Assembly: GCA_029339195.1 (NCBI GenBank)
Contig: JAPTJF010000091.1
Location: forward strand, 1-64,000
From: Micractinium sp. NFX-FRZ
Lineage: Eukaryota; Chlorophyta; Trebouxiophyceae; Chlorellales; Chlorellaceae
Direction: 5' to 3'
DNA: 64,000 nt
Position numbers and translations under genes: made by a program. The notes under the pieces were generated by a model, which ran no database searches, was not told the DNA's origin, and was given only the letters and a program-made list of their open reading frames with translations. This document shows, in pieces, positions 7,965 through 41,948 of the stretch; the stretch's first letter is position 1; each line of letters opens with the position of its first letter.

Positions 7965-8430
7965 TTAAACGGCCAGCAGCCTTCCAGCTAACCACTCTGC
8001 GCCCGCTGGCTCGTCAAGTGGCAGCTCATCTGCCTCCGCAATTCTAACAGACTGCTCATACCTTGCCTGACGCCAGCTGACGTACATCCGCCGTCGCAGT
8101 TCAACCTTCTGCAGCTCGCACCTCCACCGCTGCTGTGCATTGACCTCCTCCTGCTGCTCTTCCTGCTGCTGCTGCAATGATTGTGGCGGCTGTGGCGGCT
8201 GCTCCTCCTCCTCTTCTTCCTCCCGCTGCTCGCCCTGCAACGGCCCTGCCGCCACTGGTGAGTCATCAACTCCGGCACCGCTTGACAGGCAGTCATCCAG
8301 CGGCGCCGGCAGCCACGGCTCCTCCCCCTGTGGGGCTGTGTCTGGCGCCAGCTGCACATGCCCAGGCTGCACAGCTGTTTTCTCCGGTGCCAGCTGTGCC
8401 CGCTCCTCAGCCTGCTGCTGCTGCTGCGGC

Positions 8431-23676: not shown

Positions 23677-26600
23677 ATGTCCAGCAGTGCTTCCACTGCT
23701 CTTAGCTGCGCGCTGCGCTCCGGACAGCCTCTGCCCGATAGTCTGATTATATCGTACCTGGAGGAGCTGCAGGAGGAGCGGAAGCAGCCCAGCAACGTGA
23801 GTTCTCGGTGATCGGTGGAGGACTCGCGCGCTTCCCGACCCCCTCTGCCCTCCGGCAGGCGCATTGTAGACTGCAGACTCGTTTGGCACCGCCACTTGCG
23901 CCCATGCAGGCGGGGGCGGCTGAGCACCTTCAAGTTTCCAGCGGGCAGTGCGGTGATGGCTCTTCCGCGATGATGCTGGCGCGCCGAGAACAGACGATTA
24001 GGGCCACTGGAGACCGCCTGGCGCCGTCAGCCTTTGTGCTCAACCCGGGCGGCAAGGTGGTGCTGGCCGTGGCACAGGGCCCTCCCCAGGCCTTCTACAT
24101 TAGCAAGGACGCGGAGGACAGATTCGTGACGCCCACTATACCCCAGGGCACCACCTACGAGTGGTGGGTGCTGCCGCCGCTGCCGCCCAGCCGCCACTCC
24201 CGCCGCTGCCACGCTGCCGCCTTGCACCCACGTCGGCTGGCTCCCGACGCTTCGTTCTGGCGCAGTTGGATGCCGCCGGGATTCAATCCTCCTGTTCGGG
24301 GATCTGTGAAAGCAGCCTGCACACATGCGTCTCTGTTACAGGCTCATCCCCGCTTCCTCCCTGCCTCCCCATCGCTCACTCTACCTTGCTTGCTTGCGCC
24401 CGCCGTGCTACGTCCCGTCCCTGCAGGACGCCTGCTGAGCCCGGGCGTTACATCGTGCAGAGCGAGGTGTACCCGCACCTGCGGTCCACCATTCAGGTGC
24501 TGCAGGAGGCGCAGCAGGAGGACGCGACCGCTGTGCCTGCGCCAGGCGACATTGCCGCAGCCCGCCGCCGGCGCTCCAGCAGTATGCTGGGCAGCAGTGG
24601 CCCAGGCAGCAGCCTCGCCGACGAGCTTAGCAGCAGGGGGGCGTCCGCAGTGGATGAGCCGATCAGCTTCCCAGCGCTCACCGCTGCCCGCCCTGCCGGC
24701 TGGGGCGGCAGCAACAACAGCAGCAGCGGGATGCTCAGCCGAGCCACGCAGACGGCCGGCGGCAGCAGCGGCACCGTGAGCCGGCACACCTCCACCAGCA
24801 CAGTGTCCCCGGGGACGGTCCTGGGCCGCTTTGCACAGGCAGCAGAGGATGCTGATGCGGATGATGAGCTTGACCTGGAGGCAGCAGAGGCACCAGCTGG
24901 CAGCGGCCTGCGCCGCCGCCCACGCTCCAGCGCTGCTCCGCTGCCGGGCGCACCCCCAGGGGGCAGCCTGTCTGCCGTCACAGAGGCGCAGCGGCAGCAG
25001 CAGCAGCTGCCTGCTGGCGTGCTGCCGCCACTCAAGCCGGCGCAGCCGGCGGGGCTGGCGGGCCGCGAGAGCTTCTCCGTCCTGTCGAGCGGCTCAGGGG
25101 TGAGCGCCCGCCAGCGCCCAACTCTCGCCCTGCCTTGACAGGCATGCTCAGCTGCCGCGCCGATCGCAGCTGCTAGCCGCCATACGCTGACCACACTTGC
25201 TCTGCCCGCCCTGCTCTGCCCTGCCCTGCACCCTGCAGAGCTCCCCCCGCAGTGGCAGCGATCGCAGCTCCTCGTCAGCGCCTCCCCTGGTGGTGCAGCG
25301 CCGCATCCCAGGTGGCATGCTGCAGACCACACACGCCTACCCCTCAGCCGCAGCCCGCAGCAGCGTCTACAGCGACTCGCTCAGCGGCGGCAGCGATGAG
25401 AAGCAGCCGCTGCTGTTCAACGTGGCGGGGTCTCGCAGCGGGCAGGGCCCGCTGCACTCCCCCAGGTGGGAGTCGGGGCCTGGGTGGGAGGCAGGGTTGG
25501 GCAGGGCATTGCACAGGGCCGGGCAGAGGGTATTGGCAGGAACCAGAGGTATTGTGGAAGGGGGATCCGGCAATGGGTGGTGGCCTCTGGGGCAGCCTCC
25601 TACCCCTGGCCCCCTAGCTGTGCATGCGAGGTGGCAGCCTACTGCAGCCGGCCCACTGGCACCTACCCACAGCTGTCCTGTGCCCACCCTGCCTCCTGCC
25701 TGCCTGTGTGCCGCCCTGCAGCTACGGCAGCAGCACGGGCAGCTTCCGGCCGTACCCCGCCGCCATGCCGCCCCACATGCAGCGCCCGCAAGAGGACCGC
25801 GCCCCCACGCCGCACAAGTGCCCGCGCTGCCGCAAGGAGTATCTGTCCACCATCAACCAGCGGCGCTGCATCAGCTCACACCTGGGCAACGGGGGCAAGG
25901 GGCGTGGCGCCGGCCCCAGCGGCAGCATGCCAGGTGGGCTGATGGGCCAACGGGGGTGATGTGTGCTTGCTGCGTGGGCGTGGCATGATTGGGTGCTCGC
26001 CTGTTGGTGCTCCTCCCGCCTACACAAGGGCTGCTGTCCGTGCACCCGGGCCCAGCTGGCATGTTGGTACGTTTCTGGTTCGGTGAATGTTCTTGACTTG
26101 AGCCGGAGGCTGCCAGCTGTCGCTGCGTGTCGCCAATAATTGCTTGTCGCAGCCTGCTGGTTCCGCTGCCTCTCAAACCGCCTCATGTGCTCTCCCTGCC
26201 CTAACGTACTGCAACATGTTTACCTCCTCCTGCAGATTCTGCCCAGCTGGCCGCCTTTTGGGACGAGCTGGATGAGGGGGAGAAGCGGGCTGTGATGGAC
26301 CTCAGGAGCGAGCTCAATGGGGAGATGCTCATGCGGCAGGTGGGGGCACGTGCCAGCAGGGCGGGCCAGGCGGGCACGTGGGGTGCTGCCCTGCGCTGTG
26401 CTGTGCTGTGGGTTGCTGTTCTGCGTTACGCTGTGCTGCGTGCGCGGGCAGCTCTGGTAACTGCCTCACCACCCGGTTGCCGCCTGCCTCACCACGCGCT
26501 TGCCTTCTCCCCTCCCCCTGCAGCTAGGGACCCCACCCATCCCATCCCACTGCGCAGTTTTGGCCCCGCTTCCTGGCCCCTCCATGACCCAGAATATCTT

Positions 26601-28972
26601 CCCTGCCGCCCTCTCCTGCAGTTTGAGGTGCAGAAGCTGCACCGCCAGCGCTTGCGGGCGATGCCAGAGACTGCCTCTTGTGCAAGCCTTGTTTCTCAAC
26701 CTATGCTTGCTCTCACGCTCCACCTGTGCAGCTGGAGATCCAGAAGCTGCACCGGCAGCGCTCGGGGGCCATGGATCAGCTCACCCAAGAGCAGAAGCGG
26801 CTGCACACCTCCGGCCTGCTGCTGCACTCGGCCTGCGAGGGCGGGCGCGGCAGCACGGGCGTGGCGGCGGCCATCCAGCGCCTCACAGGGGCAAACCTCA
26901 TGCGGTGAGGCAGGCCAGCAGGACATTCTGTTGATGTATGTGCGGTGGACTTCCGGCAGCAGTGCAAAAGCAGAGTCGGCGCATGCGTGAGCTTGTGCTG
27001 CTGCCCGGCCGCCCTCGACATGCTCCGTCGGGCAACCAGTGGGTCTGCGCCTGCCGCCCCTGACCTCTCCCTTGTATCCCACCTGCGTCCTCCCCTCCCC
27101 CGCCGCAGTGTGCTGAGCGAGGTGAGCGAGGGCACTTTCCTGGCGGACCGCAACCCCATCAGCCAGGAGGAGTTCCACACAGGTGCGTGCTGTCTGAAGG
27201 TAGCATTTGTGGTGGTAGTGGTGGCAGTGTCCTGATTGCTTTGAAGTCCACCAGCCGGTCTGCTGTCTTCGGACCCAGGAGCCAAGAGTAGATTTCGTTC
27301 ACACAGGTGGACGTTGTAAGACGTTTGTTGGCGGCCTTGAGGAGCAGTGGCTGAGGGGCTGAGGCGCATGTTGACGGTCTTGGCAGGCTCACACCACTGC
27401 GATTGCAATCGTGCTACTTGTTCTCCTCGTGTGCACGCTGCTGTTGCCGCCACCTCTGCTGGCCACCACAACCGGCCCGGACCCTACCCAACCTGCGGCA
27501 CCTCCCTCCCTCTTGCTGCACCTGCAGGCAACAACCTGGAGGCTGGGCTGGGTGCCCTGGTGATGAAGCGCCTGGTGGATGCCCACCTGGCAGCCAAGCA
27601 GCGCCAGGCGGACCGCCTGCAGCGCGAGCTCGAGGCGAGAGGGGAGGGCTCGTGGTTTGGGAGGGGGGTGGCGGGAGGGGGGCTGGAAGGGGCGCACGGC
27701 AGCGGTGCTGGCAGTGTGCGTGCGGCAGCGGGCTGGGACAAGGTGGCCTGGGAGGGCGTGAAGGGCTGGGGTTAGGGTTGGGGTCGGGGCTGGCGACGTG
27801 GCTGTGCGGCTGGCAGTGTGCGGGGCAGGCGCTGCTCTTTCTTCTGGCTGTACCTGTTGCCCATGCGAAGCTGCGCTCGGTGCTCCGACTCACACAGAGT
27901 TTCTGCTCCTCCCTGGTGCTGTGCTGCAGGACCAGGAGGCGGTCCAGCAGGCTCAGAAGGCCGGCAAGAAGAAGGTCAAGGCAAAAGCCAAGGGCAAGGC
28001 TGTTGCTGCCGCAGCACCGCCAGCTGGCAAGCCCGCCGGCAAGGCGGCACTTGCAGCTCCAGCAGCGGCACCTGCTGCCCCGGCAGCGGCCTCCGCTGTT
28101 GCCTCGGATTCAGATGACGGGGCCGCTCCAGGAGCAGCAGATGTCTCCCAGCAGCAGCAGCAGCAGCAGCAGAAACATCAGGAGAGCCTCCCACCGCCGC
28201 CAGCAGCGGAGCAGGCCAACGGCACTGCAGTAGCAGCAGCACCAGCCGCGCCGCCAGCTGCCGACGTGCTTTCGCCACCACGCCCCGGTGGCGGCGAGCG
28301 CTACGGCAGCAGCCCGGTGAAGCCCTCTGCTGGTGCCGCCGAAAGCAGCAGGTTTACCAACTTCCTGTTTGCTGAGGAAGCCGAGGTGGAGACGCAGCCT
28401 GTGGCAGAGGCCGGGGCAGAGCCAACCAACGGCTGGCGCATGGCCGGCAGCGGGCGCGCCACGCGCACCTCCTCCCAACCTGTCAGCGCGCCCAAGGCTG
28501 GCCGCAGCAGCAGCAGCAGCCGCGTGCCGCCAGCAGCAGCAGCACCCAAAGGCACTGCTAGGGGAGCTGGGCGTGGCGGCAACGGCGGCCTGCAGCAGGA
28601 GCGGCCTTCCTCGAGAAATGCTGCTGAGCGTGCCGTGCCTGCCATCGGCAGTGCTCCGGCGGCAGCAGCACCGCCCAAACCGGCAGCAGCACCAAGCAAC
28701 GGCAAGACGCCGGCAGCGGCGACAAGCAGCCGCCACCCGGCTAGCGGCGCAACAGCGCCCGCAGCCAGCAGCAAGCCGCAGCAGCAGGCTCTCCCGCCGA
28801 GCAAGGAGAGCTTCCCTGCGCTGCCTGCAGTAGCCGGCGGCAAGCCTGCAGCTCCCACCGGCCCCGGCAGCGCACCAGGTGCCTCGTTCAGCTATGCAGC
28901 TGCAGCGTCCAAGTCACGGAAAGACGGCGGCAAGGCGGCAGCAGCCCCCAAGTCGGAGCCTGCAACTGCCCA

Positions 28973-29003
<31 letters not shown>

Positions 29004-30975
29004 CCCTCGGCGGTACCCTCGCTGGCGCAGCAGCCCAAGTCCTGGCCTGTGCCCGGCTCTGGCGCTGCGGCAGCAAGCTCGGCAGCAGAGGTGCCAGCTG
29101 AGAGCTTGGCGGCAGCCAGCACTGCAGCTCCAGCTGCCAGCACAGCAGACGCCGCGCCAGTGCCAGCATTCGCAGCAGGGCAGCAAGAGGTGCAGCCGGC
29201 ACCGCCACAGCCACAAGAGCCTGCCGCCAGCGCAGCAGCAGCACCAGCGGCAGCAGCCTTCATCCAGCCAGCAGCACCGGCGCAGGTGCCCGCCGCTGCT
29301 TGCGAGGAGGCAGGTGCCGAGAGCCCGCCTGCTGCTGAGGATGCGCAGCGTTGCGCCTCCGTGACGCCTCCCATCTCAGATGCTGGTGCGTGCTGGCTGG
29401 CTATTGATGACGGTCTTGCCCTGCCCACCTTGCATGCACATGCCGCTGCCTCCTCGTGGACACCTTTGACTCACCGCTCTGCTGCTGCTTGACCGTCTGC
29501 CTGCCTGCGCTTCCCCAACCGGCTGCCTGCTCCTGCCCTTCCCTGACTGGCCGCCTGCCCACCCACCCTTGCTGCCCGCAGGCTCGCCTCCCCCTGGCGT
29601 GCTCCTGCCGCCGCCTGGCGCCTTCCCAATGCCGCCAGGCTGGCCGGTGGGGCCGGACGGCGCGCCGCTGCCTCCCCCTCCAATGGGGTTCTATTGGATG
29701 GTCCCGCCTCCGCCACCCCCGCCGGGCATGCAGGTGCGCAGCTGGCCGGGTGTATGTTGCCCGCGGGGAGTGCTTGGCCTGGCGTGCGTGGCGGCCTGTG
29801 CCTGCGTGACGCCCCTGCTGCAGCAGTGGGAGCTCTTTAGGTGCATGCTCTGCCGTGACCTGGGGAATGCCTGCCATTAAAGGGCCGAGTAACTGACACC
29901 CCTGCCCTGCTGGCACTTCCCTTGGCTGCAGTATGGGAACGGCGAGCCTGGGGAGGTGATGCCCCCTGGCCCTGGCCACTACATGAGCATGCCCTACCCC
30001 TTCTACGCTCCCTACCCGGTGCTGCCGCCTGGGCACCCCGCCGCTGGTGGTATGCCCATGCCGCTGCCCCATATGCTGCCCTATGCTGGCGGCGACCAGC
30101 TGGCTCCGTTCCCGCCTGGCATGCCTGTGCCAATGCCACACGACGCAGCAGCGGAGCTTGGCGCAGAGCCAGACAGCAACGAGCAAGCGCCCGAGGGCAG
30201 CTGGGCGGCTGCCGGGCCCGAGCCAGCTGGTGCAGCAGCTGAGCCAGAAGAGGCACTGGCAGACGCAGAGCCACCTGTTGGCCCGGCAGACGGTGTGGAG
30301 CCCTCTGCTGCTGCGGCCGCCGAGCAGGCGGAGGAGCAGCAGTGGAAGGAGCAGCAGCGGGAGGATGCCCCGGCTGCCAATGGCAGCGACGCCAGCAGCG
30401 CCCCCATTAGCAGCAGGAAGAAGAGCAGCTTTCTTGAGATGCTGCAGGAGGCGTGCGGGGTGCCAGCTGGAGCACAGCTTCCGGCTGCAGCCCCAGCACC
30501 TGGCGGCGGCCGCCGGCGCGGCGCCCCCCGCACCCCGCCCGGCTTTGATGCCGCTGCTGCAGCAGCGGAGCTGGACCGCCGCTGGAAAGCAGCGGCCCCC
30601 CAGTCAGTCCCTGCCAGCAGCCTCTCCGTGCCGTCGACTGGCCCGGCAGCAGCAGCAGCGCCCGCCCTGCAGCGGCCAGACCGGCGCAGCAGCGGCGGCG
30701 GCACGGTCAGTGGCAAGGCCGTGGGTGCACCTGCCTGGGCCAGCACCGGCGGCCAGGCCGGCAGCAAGCCTACCAAGATGGTGGGCAGCGGCAGCGGGCG
30801 CAACAGCCCGGCGGCAGGTGCCAAGCCTGTGGTCGTGGCTGTCCGCGCCTGGTCTAGCAGTGAGGAAAGCGCGATTGCCGACGGCCAGGGACCCAAGTGG
30901 CGCATCCAGGCAGCAGCGGCAGCAGCCAAGCAGCAGCAGTCGCAGCTGCAGCAGCAGGCGGCGCAGGGCAAGTGA
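23677..30975 (+). CDS. Large low-complexity protein with possible NST1-like segment
   Basis: Twelve exons (23677-23796, 23859-24163, 24427-25099, 25239-25465, 25722-25933, 26236-26339, 26732-26904, 27109-27182, 27528-27634, 27930-29385, 29582-29733, 29932-30975) close in phase to 1548 residues. The N-terminus has a helix (SLIISYLEELQEERKQ) and a small beta-type domain ending YEWTPAEPGRYIVQSEVYP. A CPRCRKEY cysteine motif follows. Residues about 510-660 (AAFWDELDEGEKRAVMDL, KLHRQRSGAMDQLTQEQKRL) recall the salt-tolerance down-regulator NST1 domain of fungi and plants; this is a tentative match. The rest is K-, Q-, A- and P-rich disorder with polyQ near 28150 and 28970, and a proline/methionine/tyrosine-rich segment (GPGHYMSMPYPFY) typical of RNA-granule proteins. 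Intron 9 has a GC donor (GAG|GCGAGA). Function is not established. Confidence 0.7.
26619..26664 (+). repeat. Copy of gene 5 exon 7 start plus acceptor
   Basis: The acceptor and first 45 bases of exon 7 (encoding LEIQKLHRQRSGAM) have a diverged copy 110 bp upstream that reads FEVQKLHRQRLRAM. The upstream copy has a good CAG acceptor but no donor, so the second copy is taken as the exon. Use of the upstream acceptor with read-through cannot be excluded. Confidence 0.88.
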
Positions 30976-32306
30976 AGGTGAGGGCGCTGCGTGGGGATGG
31001 GACTTTGATGAAGGACAGGAGGGGCAGGGGGCCAGCAGCCAGAGCGTCAGGCCGTGCCACCTGTCTGGCCCAAGGAGCATGCCGCGGCATGCCGTGCCTC
31101 TGCAGTTTTGCTCACGCCTCGCTAGCCTTGCTTCCTCCCCTGCCCTGCAGCTTCCGCCCACGGCTGCCCCCCGGCTGCACGCCGAGGGCCCTGCCCCCTA
31201 GCACGCCCCTCTGTGACTGAGCTGGGGCTGAGCTAGCATGGGGAGCGGGCCTGCCCGTGCTTGCGCCGCCCCGGCCAACCCCACTTCAGTGTGTACCCTC
31301 TCAGCTCCATCTTTACTGCAACACCCACTCATAGTGTGACCATGAGCTCTAGGTAGCATGGCCCCCCATTTCAATCCCCATCCACACCCCCACATGCCCC
31401 CAAGATACACCCTAGAAGCAGCTGCAACTAACCCCAGGCCAACTTGCCTCGGCAACCCGACCCCAGAACCGCCCACTGCCCCTTTCTTTCTTTCCTTTGC
31501 TTGACTCTGCTTTTCATGCGATGCCACCCCACTCCCGCCCCCTCACTCTATAACCTCAGGTCCCACCCAGGCATAAGGAGTTATACGCATTCTACCATCT
31601 CATTTTTGGACCAAAGATTCATTCTCTCGTTTTCATGTCCGCGCCCCGCCCACCCCCCTGCCCTGTGACCGCCGCCTCCTTTGGGCGCCAACCCCTACCC
31701 ACATTTTAGCTGTCCCAACACCCTGCCGTGCATTTTGCGTCTTGCCCCCTGTCTGCCTGCCAGCCCTGCCATGCGAGTAAATTGTGTACATATCCACTTG
31801 GGCCACTGCAATGAAAACTCGATGCCGCGTGAGCACACAGAGGCAAAGGTTGCGAGGCCGGCGGTGAGCTCAAACTGCTGGCAGCCTATAGTGCGGGCAG
31901 CCTGCCAACGCACCGCTGCCTCTGCCAACGAGACCGGCTCCGATGTTGGTTCCACCAGCGCACTGAGCGTGGATTGTTGTGCGGGGATTGTTGGCATGCT
32001 TTGTGTCCCAGCTTGATGCCGCCTTGGGTGCCGTCAGTGTGCTCTTTGCACCCATTGTTTAAATCCCAGGTTCTGTGTTACCAGCGCTTTGTACCTCACA
32101 TGCGAAAGGCAAGTGTAGCAGGGATTCGGTGCATGCAATGTGGATTTATGGCGGCCTGCCAGTGGCTGTCACCAGGGGCATGCGACATGCCGCCTCGTTG
32201 GCAGACCGCCAGACCGCGGCGGTCTGACCTCCCGCCCTTTCCTTCCGCACCGCACACTCACTTGCTGCTCGTGGCGTGCCCTCTTTGAAAGCGCAGTTTA
32301 GTCTAA
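30976..32306. other. 3' UTR of gene 5 and promoter of the first RNase T2-like gene
   Basis: About 1.3 kb contains no exon I can support. The half nearer gene 6 is less GC-rich (for example 31540-31640 and 31760-31820). No tRNA or repeat was noticed. Confidence 0.5.
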
Positions 32307-35072
32307 ATGCCCGGGCGCCTGGTTGCACTGGCCTGCGTCCTGGCCTGCTGCCTGGCTGGGTCCGAGGCCGCAGACGTGCTGGTGCTCAGGAGGTGCGGGG
32401 TGCATTGTGAATCGCTATGTTTGGATCATTGTGAGGCTGAATTGCCCGCAGACTGGCCGCTGGCGGCAGCCGCTGGGTTTGTGTGGGCCGCAGCCGTCGG
32501 GAGCTGGCTTCAGCTTCACCTCTCCCGCGAACGTGCCCTTGCCGCGTTGCAGGGACTGGACGGCGACAACATGCTCGGCGGGAGGGTGCAGGGCATACCC
32601 GTAAGTCATCCAGAAGGTTGCGCTGCACAGCCTTCCCGCCGCCGCCGCCGCCGCCATGCGCATGCCGCAGCAGCCAGGGCGGTGTACTAGCGGCGCGGTG
32701 TCTAAGGCACCTTGATCATTCTCCCATCCCTCCTCGGCGCCCACTTTGCAGGGACTCGTTCAGCATTGACGCTCTTTATGTTGCCAGCGAGGCCAGCCCC
32801 GAGCCGCGGTCCTTGTGCCGTGCGGGCGGCAGGGGCGGCCTGAAGAGCGCTGATCTGGACGCAGCTGGGGTCAGCCGTGCTGAGCTGTCGTGCGCCTGGC
32901 AGAATTATGACCGTGAGTAGTGGTGGTGGTGGTGTGGGGGGTGGGAGGCCCGCCTACTGTTCAACAGTGCTGCTTTGTTGCAGCTAGCGGCCGTCAGCCA
33001 GCGCCATTTGCGCTGGTACGCTTCCGCCGCATGCCCCGCCCATGTGCCGGCCCTTGCGCCCTTTGCCAGGCGGGCCTCCCCAGCAGCCTGCAGCAATGCT
33101 GGCCATCCCCTTGCCTGTTTTGAAAACCCACTTGCCCCTGACCCTGGCAGCTCGCTCCCCTGTGCCGCCCCACGCTTTGCATGCTGGGCCTGCAGCCAGC
33201 GTGAAGAGCCTGCAGGAGTCGTGGAAGGATTCGTGGGATGTGTACGGCAAGTGCACGCCCGCCGGCAGCGCCGTGGATTACCTCCAGCTCGGCCTGCTGC
33301 TGGACAGGCGGTACCCCCTGGTGAGGCGCTTCGCTGTTTGGTGTGCCGTGCCGTGCTATGCATGCTGTGGTGCGTCATGGCATGCAGCACGGCATGCCGG
33401 CTCACATGCCCATGCCTCCCCCTCACTTGACGGAAGGTCTGCTGCACCCTCGCTCCTGGTTGAATGCAGCCGCAGGACCTCCCCCCTCTTGTGGATCCCG
33501 AGCAGCTGAAAGCGGCGGTGCAGGCGGCTTTCGGAGTCCGCCCCATCCTTGCCTGCGACGGGTGAGAGCGCGCTTGCTGCCCCCTCCAGCACGCGCCAGG
33601 CGCCATGTGCGGGTGCTGCTTCGCAACCCTCTGGCCAGCCAGCAACAAGCAGTCAGTGTTTGTTAGCGCTGTTGGCCCAAACACCCCACTTTTTGCTGCA
33701 CGGCATGCACCCTTCCCCCCTCTGCTCCTCCCCGATGCAGGCAGCAGCACTTGCGCAACATCCAGCTGTGCTTTGACCCAGCCACTGCCACGCCCCGCGA
33801 CTGCCCCTGGCCCGCGCCGGCCGGATGTGCAGGCCAGCTCAGCCTGCCGCGCAGCGGACGGGTGAGCCTGCGCGTGCAATCCCTTGCCTGCACCTGCCCA
33901 CCCGGCCTGCTGTGTGTGGGCCTCCGCCTGCCTGCCTCTGCTGGCTGCTGCCTGTGCTCCCGAGGCAGCGGCGCAGGCCTAACCTTACCAACAACTAGCC
34001 AGCTGCCCAAGGTGCGCCCTGCTGGCCTCCCAGTCTGGCCTAGCCGGCCCAGCGATTCACACCCCCTGGAAGTGGACTCAACTCAACTCTCAGGGCTCAC
34101 AGATTCCTCTGGCAAGTGGACGAGCCATGCAACCAGGCCATGACATGGTGTGAACACACATCCCCTTTCTCTGCGCAGGGCATCGGCGCCCAGTGTGCCA
34201 GCTACTACCAACCCTCACCAGTGACTCTCAGTGGCGCCGCCCCACCGCCTGCCGCGGCCCCGCCCCCGCCAGCAATGCAGCCAGCCAGCCCCCCAACAGC
34301 TAGCGTGGAGGTGCCGCCGCCCTGGGCGCCCATCCAGCCACCCAGCGCCGCTGCCCCTGCGCCCCAACAGGAGCCCGGGCAGCCAGAGCTGGCACTGGCA
34401 CCCCCTGTGCTACCGCCAGCAACGGGGGGTGCTGGCAGCATGGGAGGCGACTTCGCAGGTGCTGCTGCCGATGGCAGCGCACAGGCTGCGCCTGCGTCGC
34501 AGCCAGCGGAGGCTGGCACTGCTGGCGCAGCGACTGGTGCAAGCGCAAGCAGCAGCGGCGCCGGCATGGCGGCAGCACTGGGGGGCGGGATCGCCGGGGG
34601 CATCATCGTCGGTGTGCTAGGTGGGCCGCACTGCCCACCCCGCCTGCCAGCCTGCCGTGGGCCTGATGCAGGGTGGCGCTGGCACACGTGTGCATGCGAG
34701 CCTGTCTTGTCAACCACAGCGGCTAGCATGTCGCTTAGGCTGGGTAGTGACCCCTCTTCCCCCTCCACCCCCACCCCCTGTGCAGTCTTTGGTGGCGGCT
34801 ACGTCCTGTACCGGCGCGGCCTGAGGGCTGGCCAGTCCTCTGCTGCCCTGCTGGCTGGCTCGGACTGCAGCAGCGAGGGCGAGGGCGGCAGCGACCCATC
34901 AGCCAAGGACGGCCACCCGCTGTCTGCCACTGAAGCTGGCTGCGCTGGCAGCAAGCAGGACGATTTGCTGATGGGCCCGGCAGGCTCTGGCCATGCCTCG
35001 GAGCAGGCATCTCAGGCGTGGGCGGTGCCCCAGTTCAGCGGGCGCCTGCCGCTGCCCACGGTGCCCGAGTGA
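32307..35072 (+). CDS. Membrane-anchored RNase T2-like pseudoenzyme, paralog A
   Basis: Eight exons (32307-32392, 32553-32600, 32752-32912, 33196-33320, 33470-33561, 33741-33861, 34179-34620, 34786-35072) give 453 residues in closed phase. A signal peptide (1-22) precedes an RNase T2-type domain (about 23-215): LVLRRDWTATTC matches the first strand, FSIDALY the CAS I region, WKDSWDVYGKC the CAS II region, then LKAAVQAAFGVRPILACDG and HLRNIQLCFD. Active T2 enzymes have FxIHGLWP and HEWxKHGTC. Here CAS I His is Asp51 and the CAS II His, Glu, Lys and His are Asp, Ser, Val and Tyr (110-115), so RNA cleavage is not expected. Most Cys positions are kept. A P/A-rich stalk, one membrane span (GGGIAGGIIVGVLV), YRR and a Ser/Gly-rich tail follow. 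It looks like a receptor or binding protein; the ligand is unknown. Confidence 0.85.
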
Positions 35073-35900
35073 CGCGCCCGAAATCCAGGGGCCTCCTGTG
35101 CAATTGCCATGACACCCCATATCCCCGGTGCAGCCCAACTGCTGCGGCATGCCTGCACCATTGCATCGCATCCAAACAGTGTGTGTGTTTCCCTCTTTTG
35201 CAGCCCGCCTGCCTTGCATACAAACAATTTGAGTACCTTGCACAGCCCTAGAATATGTGCACAGCCCTAGAATATGTTGATCTCTCATTGCCAAGCTCTC
35301 TTTCTACCTCCCTTGATCCCCTGATGCCCTGATACCCTCTGGTGCGCTGGCGGCCAAGCTCCGGCCCGCCAGCCCACTCTCTGAGTTGTGCATCCTCACA
35401 GCCCAACACCCGTCCTATTTTGTTCCTCACTTTCATGCTGATTATTTTTCAGGCCACGCACGGCCAATATGTGAATTGTCCCAGTCTGTGCAGGCGGCAG
35501 CAGTAGCAGGTGCGGACGCAGGCAGCGCCCCAGGTGCGCCCAGGCGGCACCCGGGCGGCGCTTCGGGTGGGAGGGTCAGCAGGCCAGCGAGCGTGCTGCC
35601 CACGGGGTTGTAGAACCATTGGATTTTCACAAACCGTACGCACAGTCGGGAACCGTAGGTTTGCGCGGCGTGTAGACCGCTGGGCTCAGGGTTTGAACAA
35701 GGTGCCTCCGGCGCAAGAGCCAGGTGGCGAGGTGTGAATTACACAATTCGCGCCGATCACAGGTGGGTGGGCCGATGTGCAGCCCCCTGCATGCCTTGCC
35801 GTCTGAGGAGTGGCGCAGCAGGGGCAGCAGGGGAGAGGGGAAAGAGCTGAGAGTGTCCTGCCCCTATTGGAAGTGCATCCAGGCTGAGTACTTTGTAATC
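35073..35900. other. Spacer between tandem RNase T2-like genes
   Basis: About 0.8 kb holds the 3' UTR of paralog A and the promoter and 5' UTR of paralog B. It contains a perfect 19-bp tandem duplication (cacagccctagaatatgtg at 35241 and 35260, the second with one end mismatch). No additional gene is evident. Confidence 0.6.
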
Positions 35901-38900
35901 ATGGCGGCTTCAAGGAGCCGCTGGCGGCTAATAGCCCTGGCAACGGCCTGTCTGGCATGCGCCACAGACGCCGCCGACCTGCTCGTCCTGACGAGGTGCG
36001 AAGAGCGGGAATGGATCCACATGACCGAATGAACGATCCAGGGTTGCGCTGGGGGCTGGCAAAACCCACACGGTGGGGAGTGACCTACATGTCGCTGCAG
36101 CAGCAAACCTGACGGTGGGCCCCGCACCTGCCTGGCCCTGCAGGGATTGGACACCCACAACATGTTTGGATCCGGCGCAAGGGTGCTCCGCCTCCTACCC
36201 GTGAGTGCCTGCACACCAGCAAGGGGCTGGTGCAGCCGCCGTCCGGCAGTCTCGGCCGCTCGTACTGCAGCCTTTGCTGCCGCCCCCGACGCCCCTCACC
36301 CCTGCGCAGCAAGCAGCACAGCATGCCCAGCTGCATTGGATGCCTCGTGTTGGGGCCGGGGACGAGGCTGGAACGAGCTTGAAGTGCTTTTACGTGGATG
36401 TGCGCGCACGCGCCCTGCGCACGTCAGCGGCTGTATTCGCTTGCATTCGGGGCCAGCGTGCGCCAAGACCCCAGAATTCCCACGGCTGATTGCACCATCG
36501 GCCTGTGCACCTACGGTCCCCCAGTGGCCATGCTGCTCAGGCACAGCCCTGCCAACAGCTCCTCCACCTCTGAATCGCTCCCAACCCGCCCTCTCGCGCC
36601 GCCTCCCGCACGCCGCTGCTGCAGCGACAACTTCCGGGTACAGCGCCTGGCTCTGGCCAGCGATGCCAGCCCTGCGCCGCAGACGGGGTGCAAGGGCAAG
36701 GGTGGGCTAAAGTCACAGGACATTGATAAGTCGAAGATCAGCAAAGACGAGCTGAGCTGTGCCTGGCAGAACGCCACGGGTGAGCGGGCGCAGGGGGCGG
36801 GGGTGTGGGACACGGCGCATCGTTCTCGACAGTGGAGCATGCGAGGGTGCACCAGCCTACGAGGGGCAGGCCGTGCACACACGGCGGCGCGGAGCAAACG
36901 TGTGGCTGTATGGCAGTGGTGTGTGGGAGACCACTGGCCGTTCGGGTAGGAGCACCTGGAGGGAGCTGTGCTGCTGCGGAGATGCCTTCAAGCCCCTGTG
37001 GCAGTGCAATGGCAGGTGCACGGCCTGCCTGGCTGCGGCGCATGAAGCGCTGCACTCCGGGCTGCCCGTACATGGCAGCATTTGCGCCGCGCCCCCCTGT
37101 CGCATGGTGTGCGCTGCACGCTCTGCCTTGTCCCGCAAGCCCACCACCTGCCACACCATCCCTGGCGCGCCATCTGGTCGTGCCTCTCTGTTGCGCGGGC
37201 CACTTGCCCCCTGCACTCCTGCCTTCTCCCCCGCACCCACCTTCCTGGCACTTCCCGCCCTTTCCCCTTCCTGGTGTGCAGACGGCCTGAAGAGCCTGCA
37301 GAACAGCTGGAAGGAGTCGTGGGCAGAGTATGGCAAGTGCACGCCTGCCGAGGACGCGATTGCTTATTTAAAGCTGGGCCTGGATTTGGACAGGCAGTAC
37401 CCCCTGGTGAGGAGCGGCCCACGCTGTGTGTGCTGCGCTGTGCTGCGCTGTGCTGTGCTGCGTTGCTGTGCCGGGTCTGGAGCCGGGTCTGGGGGCTGGA
37501 CAACCAGCGCACGCTGGTCCATGCATGCCGTGCTGTGCTGGCTGCGCTGCGCTGCGCTGCGCCATCCCCACCTGCGCCCTGCATTGCGTGCCTGCACACC
37601 TCATCTGCGCCCAGCAAGCAAGCCTGCCCCTGTCTTCGCATTACCGCTCCCCTCCGCCCTCTCCCTACCACCCCCGTGCAGCCGAATGACCTGCCAGCCA
37701 GCGTGGATTATGGCGCGCTCGTGCAGGCGCTGGCAGCCGGCTTCCAGGCCCAGGCCTTTGTGGAGTGCGACGGGTAGGCAGGGCTGCACAAGAGGCAGAG
37801 GGGATGGAGGGCGCTCATGGGGTGGTGGGATTAGTAGTGGGGCACAACAGGTCGGCCGTTGTCTGCAGCACAAGCCCGGGCCGCCGCTTCTCTCCCACCC
37901 AGCCTGGGTATCCTGCCTGCACACACCTGGGAAGCATCTGCGGGGCAAACTTGATGTGTTCATGCCCCATCTGTCGTGACCCTGCAACTCCTGCAGCGCC
38001 AAGCGTCTGACCGCCGTCTCCCTGTGCTTCAACACCGAAACAAAGGATGGAGGGCCCAAGATGATTGGCTGCCCCTGGGCCGCGCCCAGCGCGTGCGCGG
38101 GCATGCTGGCCGTGCCGCGAGGTGGCCAGGTGCGCAGGCGGCGCTGCTTCGCGCTTGCCGCCGGTTGCGTGCGCCGCTGCCCGCTGCACTTGCCTCGATG
38201 GCCGCTGATGTGTGCGTGCTGCTGCCGCTCACGCCACCTCACCAGCCCCGTGTCGCCATGCTCCCCCTGCATGGCTGCTGCAGGGACCCAGCTGCGCCGA
38301 CTATTTCAAGCAGAGCCCAGTGAACGTGACCGGCCTGGGCAGCACCGCAGCCGCGCCGGCGCCTGGCCCCGCCCAGGCTACGGTACCCCAGAACGCTACA
38401 GCCCCCGCCAAGGCGCCGGCTCAGGTCCCCGCTGGCGCAGCCCCCGCCATGGCGCCTGCGCAGGTCCCCGCTGCCACAGCGCCGGCCAAGGCGCCCGTTG
38501 CCGCTCCCACAAAGGCGCCAGCAGCGGCGCCTGAGCAGGCTCGAGAGCCCGTGGCCGCGCCTGCCAAGCCCTCCTCGCCCTCCTCACCACCACCCGAGCC
38601 TGCGCCAGCTTCGCCCCCACCCACAGATGAGCCCAGCCCTTCGGGCGGCAATCCCGACGGGACCGCCGCTCCTGCGCCCGCTCCCGCTACTGAGGGAGGG
38701 GGCGCGCCCTTTGCTGGCGACGCTGCCGCAGCGGGAGCGGCTGCCGAGCCTAGCAGCGGCGACGACAGCCCCAGCACCGGCCTCAAAATCGGAGCACTGG
38801 CGGCCGGCATTGCTGGGGGCGTCGTCATCGGCGGCGCAGGTAGGCTCAACAATGCACCGTTCTCGTGTCTAGCACCCCGTACCGCATTGCAGCGCAGCCT

Positions 38901-39822
38901 GCTTGCTTCCACCGTTTGCCACGCGGCCCACCTGCGCTGCTGCCTGTGGCTGACCCCTTCCTCCCGTGCCCTCTTGCCTCCTCCTGTCCCCTCACCCGCA
39001 GCCTTTGGCGGCGCCTGGTGGCTGTACCAGCGCAAGAAGCGGCGGGCACAGGCGGTGGGCTCCAGCCCCGCCAGCGGTGCTCACCACGACCCAGAGAAGG
39101 GCTGCCTGTCCAGCAGTGCTGAGAGCCAAAGCAGCTGGAGCAGCAGCGATGGGGCCGCCAAGCGCTTGGACAGCAAGAGCAGCGGCAGCAGCAGCCGGGC
39201 GGTTGGCGGCGCCGGCGCCGCCGGCGCCAAGCGCGGAGAGGGCGGCAGCAAGGGCACGCCTCCGCGGCGCCACCACTCGCACCAGCACCGCAGCAGCAGC
39301 GGGAGCCCAGGAATGGCCGACACGCCACCACGGCGGGCGGAAAGCGTGCGCAGCATGGGCAGTCGCCGTTCCGAGGGCGGCCACAGCGAGCGGCGGCTGG
39401 ATGGCGGCAGCGGCAGCCTGCGCCGCCTCGACAGCAGCGGCGGCAGCCTGCGGCGCGTGGACAGCACCGGCAGCGGCTTTGGCAGCGCCGGCGGCAGCGC
39501 CAAGTACACGCAGCCCACGGCGGGCGCCGCGGCGCCTGCCCCACACACGCTGGCACGCTCCGGCAGCGGCCTGGGCGGCAGCGGCAGCTACACCTCTCTG
39601 GCTGAGGAGCTTCAAGTCGTGATGTCTGCAGGCAGCGACTGCGGCGGCGACAACGGCAGCCTGCACCGCACCCTGTCTGGGCCGCGCAGCCCCAGCAAGA
39701 CTCCCTCTGGCCGCTTTGTGCCGGGCCCTCCAGTCAAGGCACTCAAATATGTGCAGCCCGCCCCGCCCACACGCAGCCCCACCAAGAGCCCCTCCGGCAA
39801 GCTGCCCTCCGTTAATGAATAG
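35901..39822 (+). CDS. Membrane-anchored RNase T2-like pseudoenzyme, paralog B
   Basis: Eight exons (35901-35995, 36144-36200, 36625-36779, 37282-37406, 37682-37773, 37997-38129, 38284-38839, 39002-39822) give 677 residues. Every intron phase (2,2,1,0,2,0,1) matches paralog A, and exons 4 and 5 have identical lengths (125 and 92), so the two genes are a tandem duplication. After the signal peptide (1 to about 24) come LVLTRDWTPTTC, FRVQRLAL in place of FxIHGLWP (His to Gln57), and WKESWAEYGKC in place of WxHEWxKHGTC (114-122); both catalytic His and the Lys are lost. Then follow VECDG and VSLCFN. A stalk of APAKAPAQVPA repeats leads to a membrane span (about 388-412) with QRKKRR stop. The 265-residue tail is Ser/Arg/Gly-rich with RRLDSSGGSLRRVDS repeats and SPSKTPSG-type sites that look phosphorylatable. 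Confidence 0.87.
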
Positions 39823-40733
39823 TAGTGATGAACACATTGCATGCAGCATGAGCACGCGTGGTGGCGGCACCCGTGCGAGGGGCGGCCCTCGCCCCTGCGC
39901 GCGCCCACCCGCCCACCTTGCCACCCTGACCACCGCGCGCGCCTGACCGTGAGCGAACACTGACTCAGCGGCCGCCCATTGGCCCGCAAAACCCTGCCCC
40001 ACACTTTTGCTGCTGCCCCGTGCGTGTGTGACCCCCATTTTCCTCCTCCTCGCAAGCCCAAACGCTCAGCTGCAGGCCTGGCGCGCCCCCACCGGCGCTG
40101 CGCCACAGCCAGGCAGTGCGCCCAGTTGCAGTGTAATGTTCGTGAATAAACCCTGATTCACTTGATTTCCATGTTCCTGTCTGCCTCCTGTTTGCGCTCC
40201 CCACCTGCGGCACGCCGCCGCGCCCAGGTGCCGTGCTGCGGGCACCTGCACCGCCGGCAAACCCCGCACCCCAAACGCATGCCCAGCTCTTTCATTCCCC
40301 AGCTGCACATATATCCCCGTTTGTCATACTGTGACGTTGCACAGTGCAATAACTGTTTAACACTTACCAGCGGTCCATCGCTTGCTGTGGTGGCAGGCGC
40401 AGGGAGTGAAGCAGCCAGCAGGCTGACGCCCAGGGTGTGGTACTTCAAGCGGAATGCAGGTATAAGCTCTCATCAGTAAACATGTGCATTTGCAAGTGTC
40501 ACATGGGGTCCCAGTGATAGACCGATCGATGGGAACGACAGAGGGCACTCAGCGCGGTCCACAGCCGCCGCCCGGGCGCGCCCCCGTCCCCGCCAGGTGG
40601 CGGGGCGGTGGGACTTGTCCCTCCTTCCAGATACAACGCGGCGGACAGCGCGCCTCACAACCCACGTCCGTTCAACTTGCGATTACACCTGGACCACAAC
40701 AGCACACGCCAAAGGGCCAGGACTCAGGGATTT
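39823..40733. other. 3' UTR of paralog B and promoter of MsrA
   Basis: The region between two plus-strand genes contains a TGTAA poly(A) signal near 40132 and no supported exon. Confidence 0.6.
40132..40136 (+). terminator. TGTAA poly(A) signal for paralog B
   Basis: TGTAA is the usual polyadenylation signal of chlorophyte nuclear genes. This copy is about 310 bases after the stop codon at 39822, a normal 3' UTR length in this group, and is followed by a short AT-richer stretch. Confidence 0.45.
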
Positions 40734-41948
40734 ATGGGCGCCAGGATGTCGGCCGAGGACAGCAAACCAGTGAGCCAGCAGCCTGCCGTCCACAGCCGTG
40801 AGCTTGATCAGGTCGGTATGTTCCCCCCGCTGAGCCGCCTTCCCCCATCCTGCGTGCAGGCCCAGTGGCCGCCTACCGGCGTGCACGCCGACGCCAACAG
40901 GACCGCCACCTTTGCTGGCGGATGCTTCTGGAGCGTCCAATTGGCGTTTGATGTAAGCGCTGGCCTGTGACTCACAGCCTATCGTTAGATTTGACTCCAC
41001 TGCGGCTGTGCTGGGACCGTTCCCCAGCCTGCCCCGGCCCTTGCCCTGCCCCCCGCCCTGCCCCACCGGCTCCTCACCCCGCCTTCCACGTTGCAACCTC
41101 CCGCTGCAGCGCGTGCCGGGCGTGGTGGCCTCCTGCGTGGGCTATGCCCAGGGCCACACGCCCAACCCCACCTACCAGCAGACGTGCACCGGCAGGACGG
41201 GGCACACGGAGGCGGTACAGCTGCTGTACAACCCTGCTGAGGTCTCGTTTGACCACCTGGTTACCACCTTCCTACACAAGATTGACCCGCGCCAGGTTCG
41301 AGGGCTGGGGTGGTGTGGGCTGCGCTGGGCTGGGCGGGGCTGGGCGGGGGCGGTGCTGCTATCCAAGGGCGGCGCCGTCTGGCAGGGGCAGGTGGCCTGC
41401 ACCGCACGCGATTTGCCCGCTGGCCCTGCTTGCTCCCAGCCCTGCCTGATCTGTACTGGTTGATGTCACCTCTGCTACGACCGTCTCTGCTGCAGAAGAA
41501 CGGGCAGGGCGGCGACATTGGCAGCCAGTACCGGACCGGCATTTACTGGCACGGCGAGGAGCAGCAGCAGGTGGGTGGGTGCTGCATGCGTTGGCGGTGT
41601 TCCCTCTTGCTGACAGTATGTGTGCTCTTCAGTACTTGCGTGCAAAGGGCAGGCAAGGGAAAGGGCTCCCCCATGCCCTCGAACTTGCTGGGAGCAGTGT
41701 CTAGAGCGGCATCGTATGCAGCATGCTGGGTCAACCCCAATGAGCCACACATGCCCGGCGCCGCGGCTCTGCAGGTGGCGCAGCAGCGCCTGGCCGCCAT
41801 CCCCGGGTGCGCTGTGGAGGCGGAGCCCTTCAAGTGCTTCTGGCCGGCAGAAGTGTATCATCAGAAGTACTTGGAGAAGGGAGGGAGGAACGGCCAGGCG
41901 CAGTGCGCGGCCAAGGGTTGCAACGACCCGATCCGATGCTACGGCTGA
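40734..41948 (+). CDS. MSRA: Peptide methionine-(S)-sulfoxide reductase
   Basis: Five exons (40734-40811, 40860-40952, 41110-41295, 41496-41570, 41775-41948) give 201 residues. The enzyme reduces methionine-S-sulfoxide in proteins with thioredoxin as donor. The catalytic motif GGCFWSVQLAF (Cys48), GYAQGHTPNPTYQQTCTG with RTGHTEAVQ, IDPRQKNGQGGDIGSQYRTG and the plant-type ending KGCNDPIRCYG with resolving cysteines are all visible. The N-terminus is short (MGARMSAEDSK), so a cytosolic location is likely. An ATG four codons downstream (40746) is also possible. Intron 1 is 48 bp, a multiple of three with no stop, so retention would add 16 residues in frame. Confidence 0.95.

What the first reader, a model, noticed from the sequence alone, without database searches (positions are those of the whole stretch)
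32307..39822. Tandem pair of receptor-like RNase T2 pseudoenzymes
Both genes encode signal peptide, RNase T2-like ectodomain, proline-rich stalk, one membrane span and a cytoplasmic Ser-rich tail. The T2 scaffold is clear from the Cys pattern and the WKxSWxxYGKC and LxACDG/LCF segments. Every catalytic residue is replaced: CAS I His to Asp or Gln; CAS II HEWxKHG to DSWDVYG and ESWAEYG. Loss of catalysis with retention of the fold, plus a membrane anchor and tail, suggests a surface receptor or RNA/ligand-binding protein. Known T2 enzymes are soluble and secreted or vacuolar. I am not aware of a described family with this layout.
Basis: partly seen in the sequence, partly recalled or inferred. 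Interest (0 to 1): 0.87.

Follow-up and report, generated by a model that had tools for sequence, protein, structure and literature searches.

The report
Membrane-anchored dead RNase T2 pair
A probable green alga carries two neighbouring genes for proteins in which an old RNA-cutting enzyme domain has lost its cutting residues, sits on a flexible stalk and is followed by a membrane anchor, probably as a binding or sensing head instead of an enzyme.

Summary
Two 8-exon genes (A 32307-35072, 453 aa; B 35901-39822, 677 aa) have all seven introns in the same phases. Each encodes a hydrophobic leader, an RNase T2 ectodomain (PF00445, E 1e-11 to 1e-13), a Pro/Ala-rich stalk, one hydrophobic span and a tail. 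Both catalytic motifs are destroyed, and the six complete ectodomains hold 0 or 1 histidine. A-type and B-type relatives with consecutive locus tags exist in Micractinium tetrahymenae and Micractinium sp. CCAP 211/92, with the same layout and losses. Four other T2 loci in the same genome keep the CAS I His and a Lys/Arg-His pair in CAS II, so the loss is not a genome-wide trend. The last ectodomain cysteine, the stalk and the start of the span share one exon, so they belong to one gene. B's 265-aa tail is nearly as conserved as its ectodomain (60-61% against 64-67%). I read them as single-pass surface binding or sensing proteins with a repurposed T2 fold. RNA binding is not supported. Soluble inactive T2 proteins are known in plants; eight paper searches listed no membrane-anchored receptor-like form. 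No function was tested.

The parts
32307..35072 (+). Gene A, 8 exons: 32307-32392, 32553-32600, 32752-32912, 33196-33320, 33470-33561, 33741-33861, 34179-34620, 34786-35072; 453 aa
   Evidence: Spliced frame without stop; relatives P0001 (487 aa) and P0002 (484 aa) align across the junctions
35901..39822 (+). Gene B, 8 exons: 35901-35995, 36144-36200, 36625-36779, 37282-37406, 37682-37773, 37997-38129, 38284-38839, 39002-39822; 677 aa
   Evidence: Spliced frame without stop; relatives P0004 (647 aa) and P0005 (629 aa)
32752..32912 (+). A exon 3, former CAS I: FSIDALYV, His replaced by D51
33196..33320 (+). A exon 4, former CAS II: SWKDSWDVYGKC (D110, S111, V114, Y115)
   Evidence: register
36625..36779 (+). 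B exon 3, former CAS I: FRVQRLAL, His replaced by Q57
37282..37406 (+). B exon 4, former CAS II: SWKESWAEYGKC (E114, S115, E118, Y119)
34179..34620 (+). A exon 7: last ectodomain Cys (C217), Pro/Ala-rich stalk and first part of the membrane span in one uninterrupted exon
38284..38839 (+). B exon 7: last ectodomain Cys (C223), Pro/Ala-rich stalk and first part of the membrane span in one uninterrupted exon
34786..35072 (+). A exon 8: rest of span and short tail ending LPTVPE
39002..39822 (+). B exon 8: rest of span and 265-aa Ser/Arg-rich tail ending LPSVNE
   Evidence: a 96-aa query of span and near tail matched only here in the genome
35073..35900 (.). 828-bp spacer between the two genes

Best explanation
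A and B are paralogous type-I, single-pass surface proteins. Shown: the ectodomain is an RNase T2 domain by descent; it keeps 10 cysteines and the T2 sequence pattern and has lost both catalytic histidines, Lys and Glu; layout and losses are conserved in three genomes. Inferred: the protein enters the secretory pathway; the Pro/Ala-rich, probably glycosylated stalk carries the T2 head through the cell wall; the small-residue (GxxxG-like, by eye) span anchors and may dimerise it; the dead T2 cleft or its rim binds a wall, neighbour-cell or secreted ligand; and B's long conserved Ser/Arg tail, with recurrent RxxS and SP sites, passes the signal on by phosphorylation-dependent docking. A, with a short tail, would act as co-receptor or adhesion partner. 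It would work like a yeast wall sensor or a receptor-like protein whose binding head was made from a dead enzyme.
For: PF00445 match in all 7 proteins scanned (A, B, P0001-P0005). CAS I His and the CAS II Lys and last His are absent in 7 of 7. The six complete ectodomains have 0-1 His and 10 Cys each. A- and B-type relatives in two Micractinium genomes carry consecutive locus tags and equal contig lengths. One exon joins ectodomain end, stalk and span start. Constraint: dN 0.43, dS 0.97 between A and B ectodomains. B's tail is 60-61% identical to its two relatives against 64-67% for the ectodomain and 37-45% for the stalk. A C-terminal LPxVxE is shared by 6 of 6 complete proteins. The stalks of P0001 and P0002 carry 5 and 6 SPPP motifs, typical of hydroxyproline-rich wall glycoproteins (recalled). 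Four of four other T2 loci of the genome keep the CAS I His and a K/R-H pair in CAS II.
Against: No ligand, partner, localisation or expression datum. No Pfam domain above its cut-off in either tail. Tail conservation could partly reflect biased composition. The window's A has no SPPP motif, B has 2, P0004 1, P0005 0, so the wall-glycoprotein argument rests on the A relatives. The AlphaFold model of P0001 is only moderate (mean pLDDT 53.5, ectodomain blocks of ten 52-92) and was not compared with solved structures. Variation of B's CAS I position (Q, G, E) speaks against a fixed contact at that place in B.
Confidence: 0.5

Rival explanations
1. Structural wall-to-membrane linkers: the dead T2 head and the proline-rich stalk only anchor the cell wall or coat to the plasma membrane, with no signalling.
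For: Pro/Ala-rich stalk, SPPP motifs in the A relatives; no intracellular enzyme domain found; A's tail is short.
Against: B's tail is long and nearly as conserved as the ectodomain, with a conserved C-terminal end; a pure linker would not need it.
Confidence: 0.25
2. Surface receptors or scavengers for extracellular RNA or nucleotides that kept binding but lost cutting.
For: Descent from an RNA-binding fold; the CAS II segment keeps its two Trp and the GxC.
Against: The His and Lys of the former active site are replaced by Asp, Glu, Gln, Gly, Val, Tyr or Phe; ectodomain pI is 4.3-5.4 in 4 of 6 proteins, though 7.6 and 8.6 in P0002 and P0001.
Confidence: 0.1
3. Regulators of true T2 RNases: the dead paralogue pairs with or decoys active T2 enzymes or their inhibitors at the surface or in the secretory pathway.
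For: T2 loci with kept motifs exist in the same genome; pseudoenzymes often regulate active relatives (general knowledge).
Against: No evidence of interaction; the ectodomain is far from solved T2 proteins (best phmmer E 1e-4 for A).
Confidence: 0.08
4. The enzymes are still active through other residues.
For: None found; T2 proteins with a changed substrate-binding His in CAS II are expected to keep reduced activity (PMC4136927, passages).
Against: CAS I His, CAS II Lys and last His are gone in 7 of 7 and there is almost no His in the domain.
Confidence: 0.03
5. Gene-model artefact: the ectodomain and the membrane part belong to different genes.
For: No transcript of the window's own species was seen.
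Against: Exon 7 holds both in one open frame; database proteins of two Micractinium genomes have the same layout.
Confidence: 0.02

Closest known systems
RNase T2 / S-like RNase family (PF00445), e.g. human RNASET2, RNase MC1, trichomaglin
   Same: Whole-domain profile match, T2 cysteine and Trp pattern, WxxxW..GxC segment, hydrophobic leader
   Different: Both catalytic histidines, Glu and Lys lost; stalk, membrane span and tail added
Inactive plant T2 proteins: Calystegia CalsepRRP, rice OsRNS4 and the grass clade lacking catalytic His (PMC5598434, PMC5520845, passages read)
   Same: T2 domain kept, catalytic His lost, genes retained
   Different: 'transmembrane' has 0 hits in the main text of PMC5598434; proposed storage role; class I losses there go with a basic pI (some class III losses with an acidic one), here 4 of 6 are acidic
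Wall-stress sensors (yeast Wsc1/Mid2 type; recalled)
   Same: Signal, small head, extended stalk, one span, Ser-rich tail
   Different: Head is a T2 domain; no WSC match in Pfam
Proline-rich receptor kinases of plants (PERKs, e.g. RHS10, PMC4783376, passages read)
   Same: Proline-rich extracellular part, one span, wall association
   Different: No kinase domain here; RHS10 binds the T2 enzyme RNS2 through its kinase side in yeast two-hybrid, a different relation to T2

Membership tests
RNase T2 family (PF00445) | Profile match over the whole domain | tested here: met
   A 48.1 bits and B 51.2 bits against a cut-off of 26; 7 of 7 proteins match
RNase T2 family (PF00445) | CAS I His and CAS II HE..KH catalytic residues | tested here: not met
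   CAS I His, CAS II Lys and last His absent in 7 of 7. Other loci of the genome: CAS I His 4 of 4, CAS II K/R-H 4 of 4 (C47 has Arg), first CAS II His 2 of 4 (Tyr in C337 and C16)
RNase T2 family (PF00445) | T2 three-dimensional fold | tested here: inconclusive
RNase T2 family (PF00445) | Soluble secreted or vacuolar enzyme | tested here: not met
   One strong hydrophobic segment (19-residue mean 1.89-2.17) C-terminal to the stalk in 6 of 6 complete proteins; hydropathy only
Inactive soluble plant T2 proteins (CalsepRRP type) | Loss of essential histidines with the domain kept | tested here: met
Inactive soluble plant T2 proteins (CalsepRRP type) | Soluble storage-protein architecture | tested here: not met
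   Stalk, span and tail present
Wsc/Mid2-type wall sensors | Head, stalk, single span, cytoplasmic tail layout | tested here: met
   (by hydropathy and composition; topology not tested)
Wsc/Mid2-type wall sensors | WSC or Mid2 domain | tested here: not met
   PF00445 was the only Pfam match of A and B at E up to 0.1
Proline-rich receptor kinases (PERK) | Intracellular kinase domain | tested here: not met
Cell-surface receptor | Ligand binding and signal transfer | not testable with these tools
   No experiment available

The most novel reading that the evidence does not exclude
The first two-component transmembrane sensor built on a dead RNase T2 head: A and B form a heteromeric cell-surface receptor of chlorellacean algae (a group with ciliate symbionts such as M. 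tetrahymenae), in which the T2 cleft recognises a ligand and B's phosphorylatable tail signals; retention of late introns could yield soluble or span-broken forms.
Probability: 0.25. Interest if true: 0.8.

Novelty: new variant of a known kind. Interest (0 to 1): 0.55.

Why it matters
Few cell-surface receptors of unicellular green algae are known (my general knowledge, not searched). A conserved pair in which an enzyme fold became a membrane-anchored head gives a defined candidate for wall sensing, cell recognition or symbiont-host contact, and shows a route by which T2 proteins, already used in recognition by plant self-incompatibility, can become non-catalytic surface proteins.

Tried and rejected
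Residual catalysis: rejected, since the six complete ectodomains hold 0-1 His. Hidden exons restoring the motifs: all 14 introns were translated in three forward frames and scanned with a pattern for His-containing pieces of CAS I and CAS II; 6 short hits, none with HGLW or HE..KH; the closest is WQVHGLP in intron 3 of B, soon followed by a stop. Chimera of two genes: rejected by exon 7. Pseudogene: rejected by open frames, GT-AG introns and constraint (dN/dS about 0.45 by NG86; the YN00 method failed). RNA binding by charge: mixed, because pI is acidic in four of six and neutral or basic in two. More distant relatives: three protein searches gave P0001-P0005 and the fragment P0006; two of them were cut at 8000 candidates and the third scored 6695, so absence elsewhere is not shown. 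NCBIfam on three proteins gave only one weak match far below its cut-off (P0003, 13.4 bits against 250). Pfam on one downstream frame that recalled MsrA gave no match. My first model of A was out of frame after exon 3 and was corrected.
Full report
What is there. The window is part of contig C91 of an unnamed 66-Mb genome in 838 contigs; that it is a green alga I infer from its best relatives. Two genes lie head to tail on the + strand, 828 bp apart. By GT-AG splicing, A has 8 exons and 453 aa and B has 8 exons and 677 aa; all seven introns of the two genes have the same phases (2,2,1,0,2,0,1), although lengths differ. They are a tandem duplication. My first model of A was out of frame after exon 3 and was corrected; the corrected junction agrees with the relatives.

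T2 descent. Pfam finds only Ribonuclease_T2 in each ectodomain and in full-length A and B (DUF6203 matches below that family's cut-off appear in P0004 and P0005). Phmmer of B against solved structures gives six matches, all T2, RNase MC1 first (E 6e-4). Phmmer of A gives trichomaglin (E 1e-4) and five unrelated chains with E 0.27 or more. A profile of seven ectodomains gives 19 matches with E up to 10, of which 12 are T2 proteins, including the ten best (trichomaglin 5.5e-9). The alignments give the register: the CAS I His of human RNase T2 and SF11-RNase stands against the D/Q column, and HEWEKHGTC against SWDVYGKC and SWAEYGKC. The six-frame Pfam search of the genome did not list exons of A or B, so single exons are too weak for it; it may miss other divergent copies too.

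Loss of catalysis. The CAS I His is D in A, P0001, P0002 and P0003, and Q, G, E in B, P0004, P0005. CAS II His/Glu/Lys/His are D,S,V,Y in A, P0001 and P0002; E,S,E,Y in B; V,S,D,Y in P0004 and P0005; Y,Q,Q,F in P0003. P0003 keeps more of the old shape (DGLF against HGLW), so it looks like an intermediate, and the loss probably predates its split from A (inference). Single histidines occur in A, P0002 and P0003 at other places, none in B, P0001, P0004 and P0005. The six complete ectodomains have 10 cysteines each. As a control, the family search gave eight exon matches at four other T2 loci (C247, C47, C337, C16); all four keep HGLW or HGFW; CAS II reads HEWAKHG, HEWERHG, YEWDKHG and YEWMKHG, so two have Tyr at the first His, a change that PMC4136927 (passages read) says may attenuate activity. 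The search with B's ectodomain matched only exons of A (2) and B (6).

Conservation. The protein searches returned P0001/P0005 (ABPG77_007891/007892, Micractinium sp. CCAP 211/92) and P0002/P0004 (ABPG75_012159/012158, M. tetrahymenae): one A-type and one B-type with consecutive tags and equal contig length in each genome. Their DNA, and so their orientation, was not seen. P0003 is a 320-aa protein on a 1219-base contig from a JGI source without organism; P0006 is a 221-aa frame from an unlabelled source that reads, by eye, as a B-type exon 4 with flanking intron. P0003 runs unbroken over the places of introns 1-5 of A and departs where intron 6 begins, with V-S as a GTGAGC donor would read; I take it as a spliced transcript that retains intron 6, but could not read its contig (inference). 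Identities: ectodomain 63-66% (A with P0001, P0002) and 64-67% (B with P0004, P0005); stalk 34-45%; span with flank 65-77%; tail 42-44% (A) and 60-61% (B); A against B ectodomain 54%. So the duplication is older than the split of the three algae, and both copies were kept. Between A and B, dN is 0.43 and dS 0.97 by NG86; this shows constraint only roughly.

Anchor and tail. In the six complete proteins one strong hydrophobic segment follows the stalk and one opens the protein; weaker segments in the tails of P0001 and P0005 (means 1.42 and 1.21) and in the ectodomain of B (1.21) also passed the lax limit of 1.2. Exon 7 holds the last ectodomain cysteine, the stalk and the first part of the span in both genes. 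B's tail has 54 Ser, 10 RxxS and 8 SP/TP in 265 aa; P0004 and P0005 have 9 and 7 RxxS, 8 and 7 SP/TP; A's tail has none of either. All six end in LPxVxE. A 96-aa query of B's span and near tail found no other copy in the genome.

Structure. AlphaFold2 of P0001 with 5 sequences gave mean pLDDT 53.5, ectodomain blocks of ten between 52 and 92 (80-92 at residues 121-200), a helix at 376-401 at the span (blocks 41-64) and low confidence over stalk and tail. The order of strands and helices fits T2 as I know it, but the comparison with solved structures was switched off and the B model could not be made.

How it probably works. The layout and B's conserved tail fit a surface binding or sensing protein. 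The acidic, neutral or aromatic replacements in the former active site speak against RNA as the ligand. I give the receptor or sensor reading 0.5, a passive wall linker 0.25, an RNA receptor 0.1. Every step after 'membrane-anchored dead T2 domain' is inference.

What is known. PMC5598434 (passages read) reports 91 sequences, in a plant set of 715, that are established as inactive or lack a conserved essential histidine; the set holds four chlorophyte sequences, and 'transmembrane' does not occur in the main text. PMC5520845 (passages) describes rice OsRNS4 with two essential His replaced, and CalsepRRP. PMC3400635 (passages, part of the abstract among them) reports growth inhibition by catalytically dead yeast Rny1, so T2 proteins can act without cutting. 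PMC12633428 (passages) mentions a tandem array of four T2 genes in Auxenochlorella; whether they are related to this pair was not checked. PMC12516953 (search listing only) describes M. tetrahymenae as a symbiont of Tetrahymena utriculariae. Eight paper searches on T2 proteins listed no description of a T2 domain on a stalk with a membrane span; I saw titles and starts of abstracts of at most 20 papers each, while four of the searches matched 73 to 396 papers, and most subscription papers are not in that library.

Verdict. It is a new variant of a known kind (inactive T2 proteins), with an architecture I did not find described, conserved as a pair in three genomes; its function is open.

Noticed in passing
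window 34621-34785 and 38840-39001: The two copies of intron 7, which cuts the membrane span, are the only two of 14 introns whose length is a multiple of three, and both are free of stops in phase, so retention would insert 54-55 residues into the span. After the fact, chance is about 5% with the stop rate of the other introns (0.64 of windows open) and about 0.5% with that of the spacers (0.20).
   Followed up: partly
P0003 (JGI source, 320 aa): The frame departs from A where intron 6 begins and reads on as an intron would, which suggests a transcript with intron 6 retained that would give a soluble ectodomain without anchor.
   Followed up: partly
G000 C337:51673-52376 and C16:151824-152395: Two canonical T2 loci have Tyr for the first His of CAS II (YEWDKHG, YEWMKHG), while the other catalytic residues remain.
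   Followed up: no
G000 C47:139776-140936: A canonical T2 locus has an open frame with a Lys-rich and Pro/Gln-repeat stretch after CAS I; it may be an unspliced intron or a real insert.
   Followed up: no
window 36780-37281 (intron 3 of B): One frame reads WQVHGLP, close to the CAS I pattern as I recall it, and meets a stop after four more codons; it lies after the CAS I exon, so it is probably chance.
   Followed up: partly
window 35052-35069 and 39802-39819, and four relatives: All six complete proteins end in LPxVxE, a possible docking motif shared by otherwise different tails.
   Followed up: partly
window 40521-40967: A downstream open frame holds GGCFW, which recalls peptide methionine sulfoxide reductase A; Pfam found no match in that frame at E 0.01, but the frame ends soon after the motif.
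   Followed up: partly
window 24001-31000: Upstream lies sequence that reads by eye as a long gene rich in Ala, Ser, Gln and Pro; its exons were not modelled and a Pfam try failed on frame.
   Followed up: no
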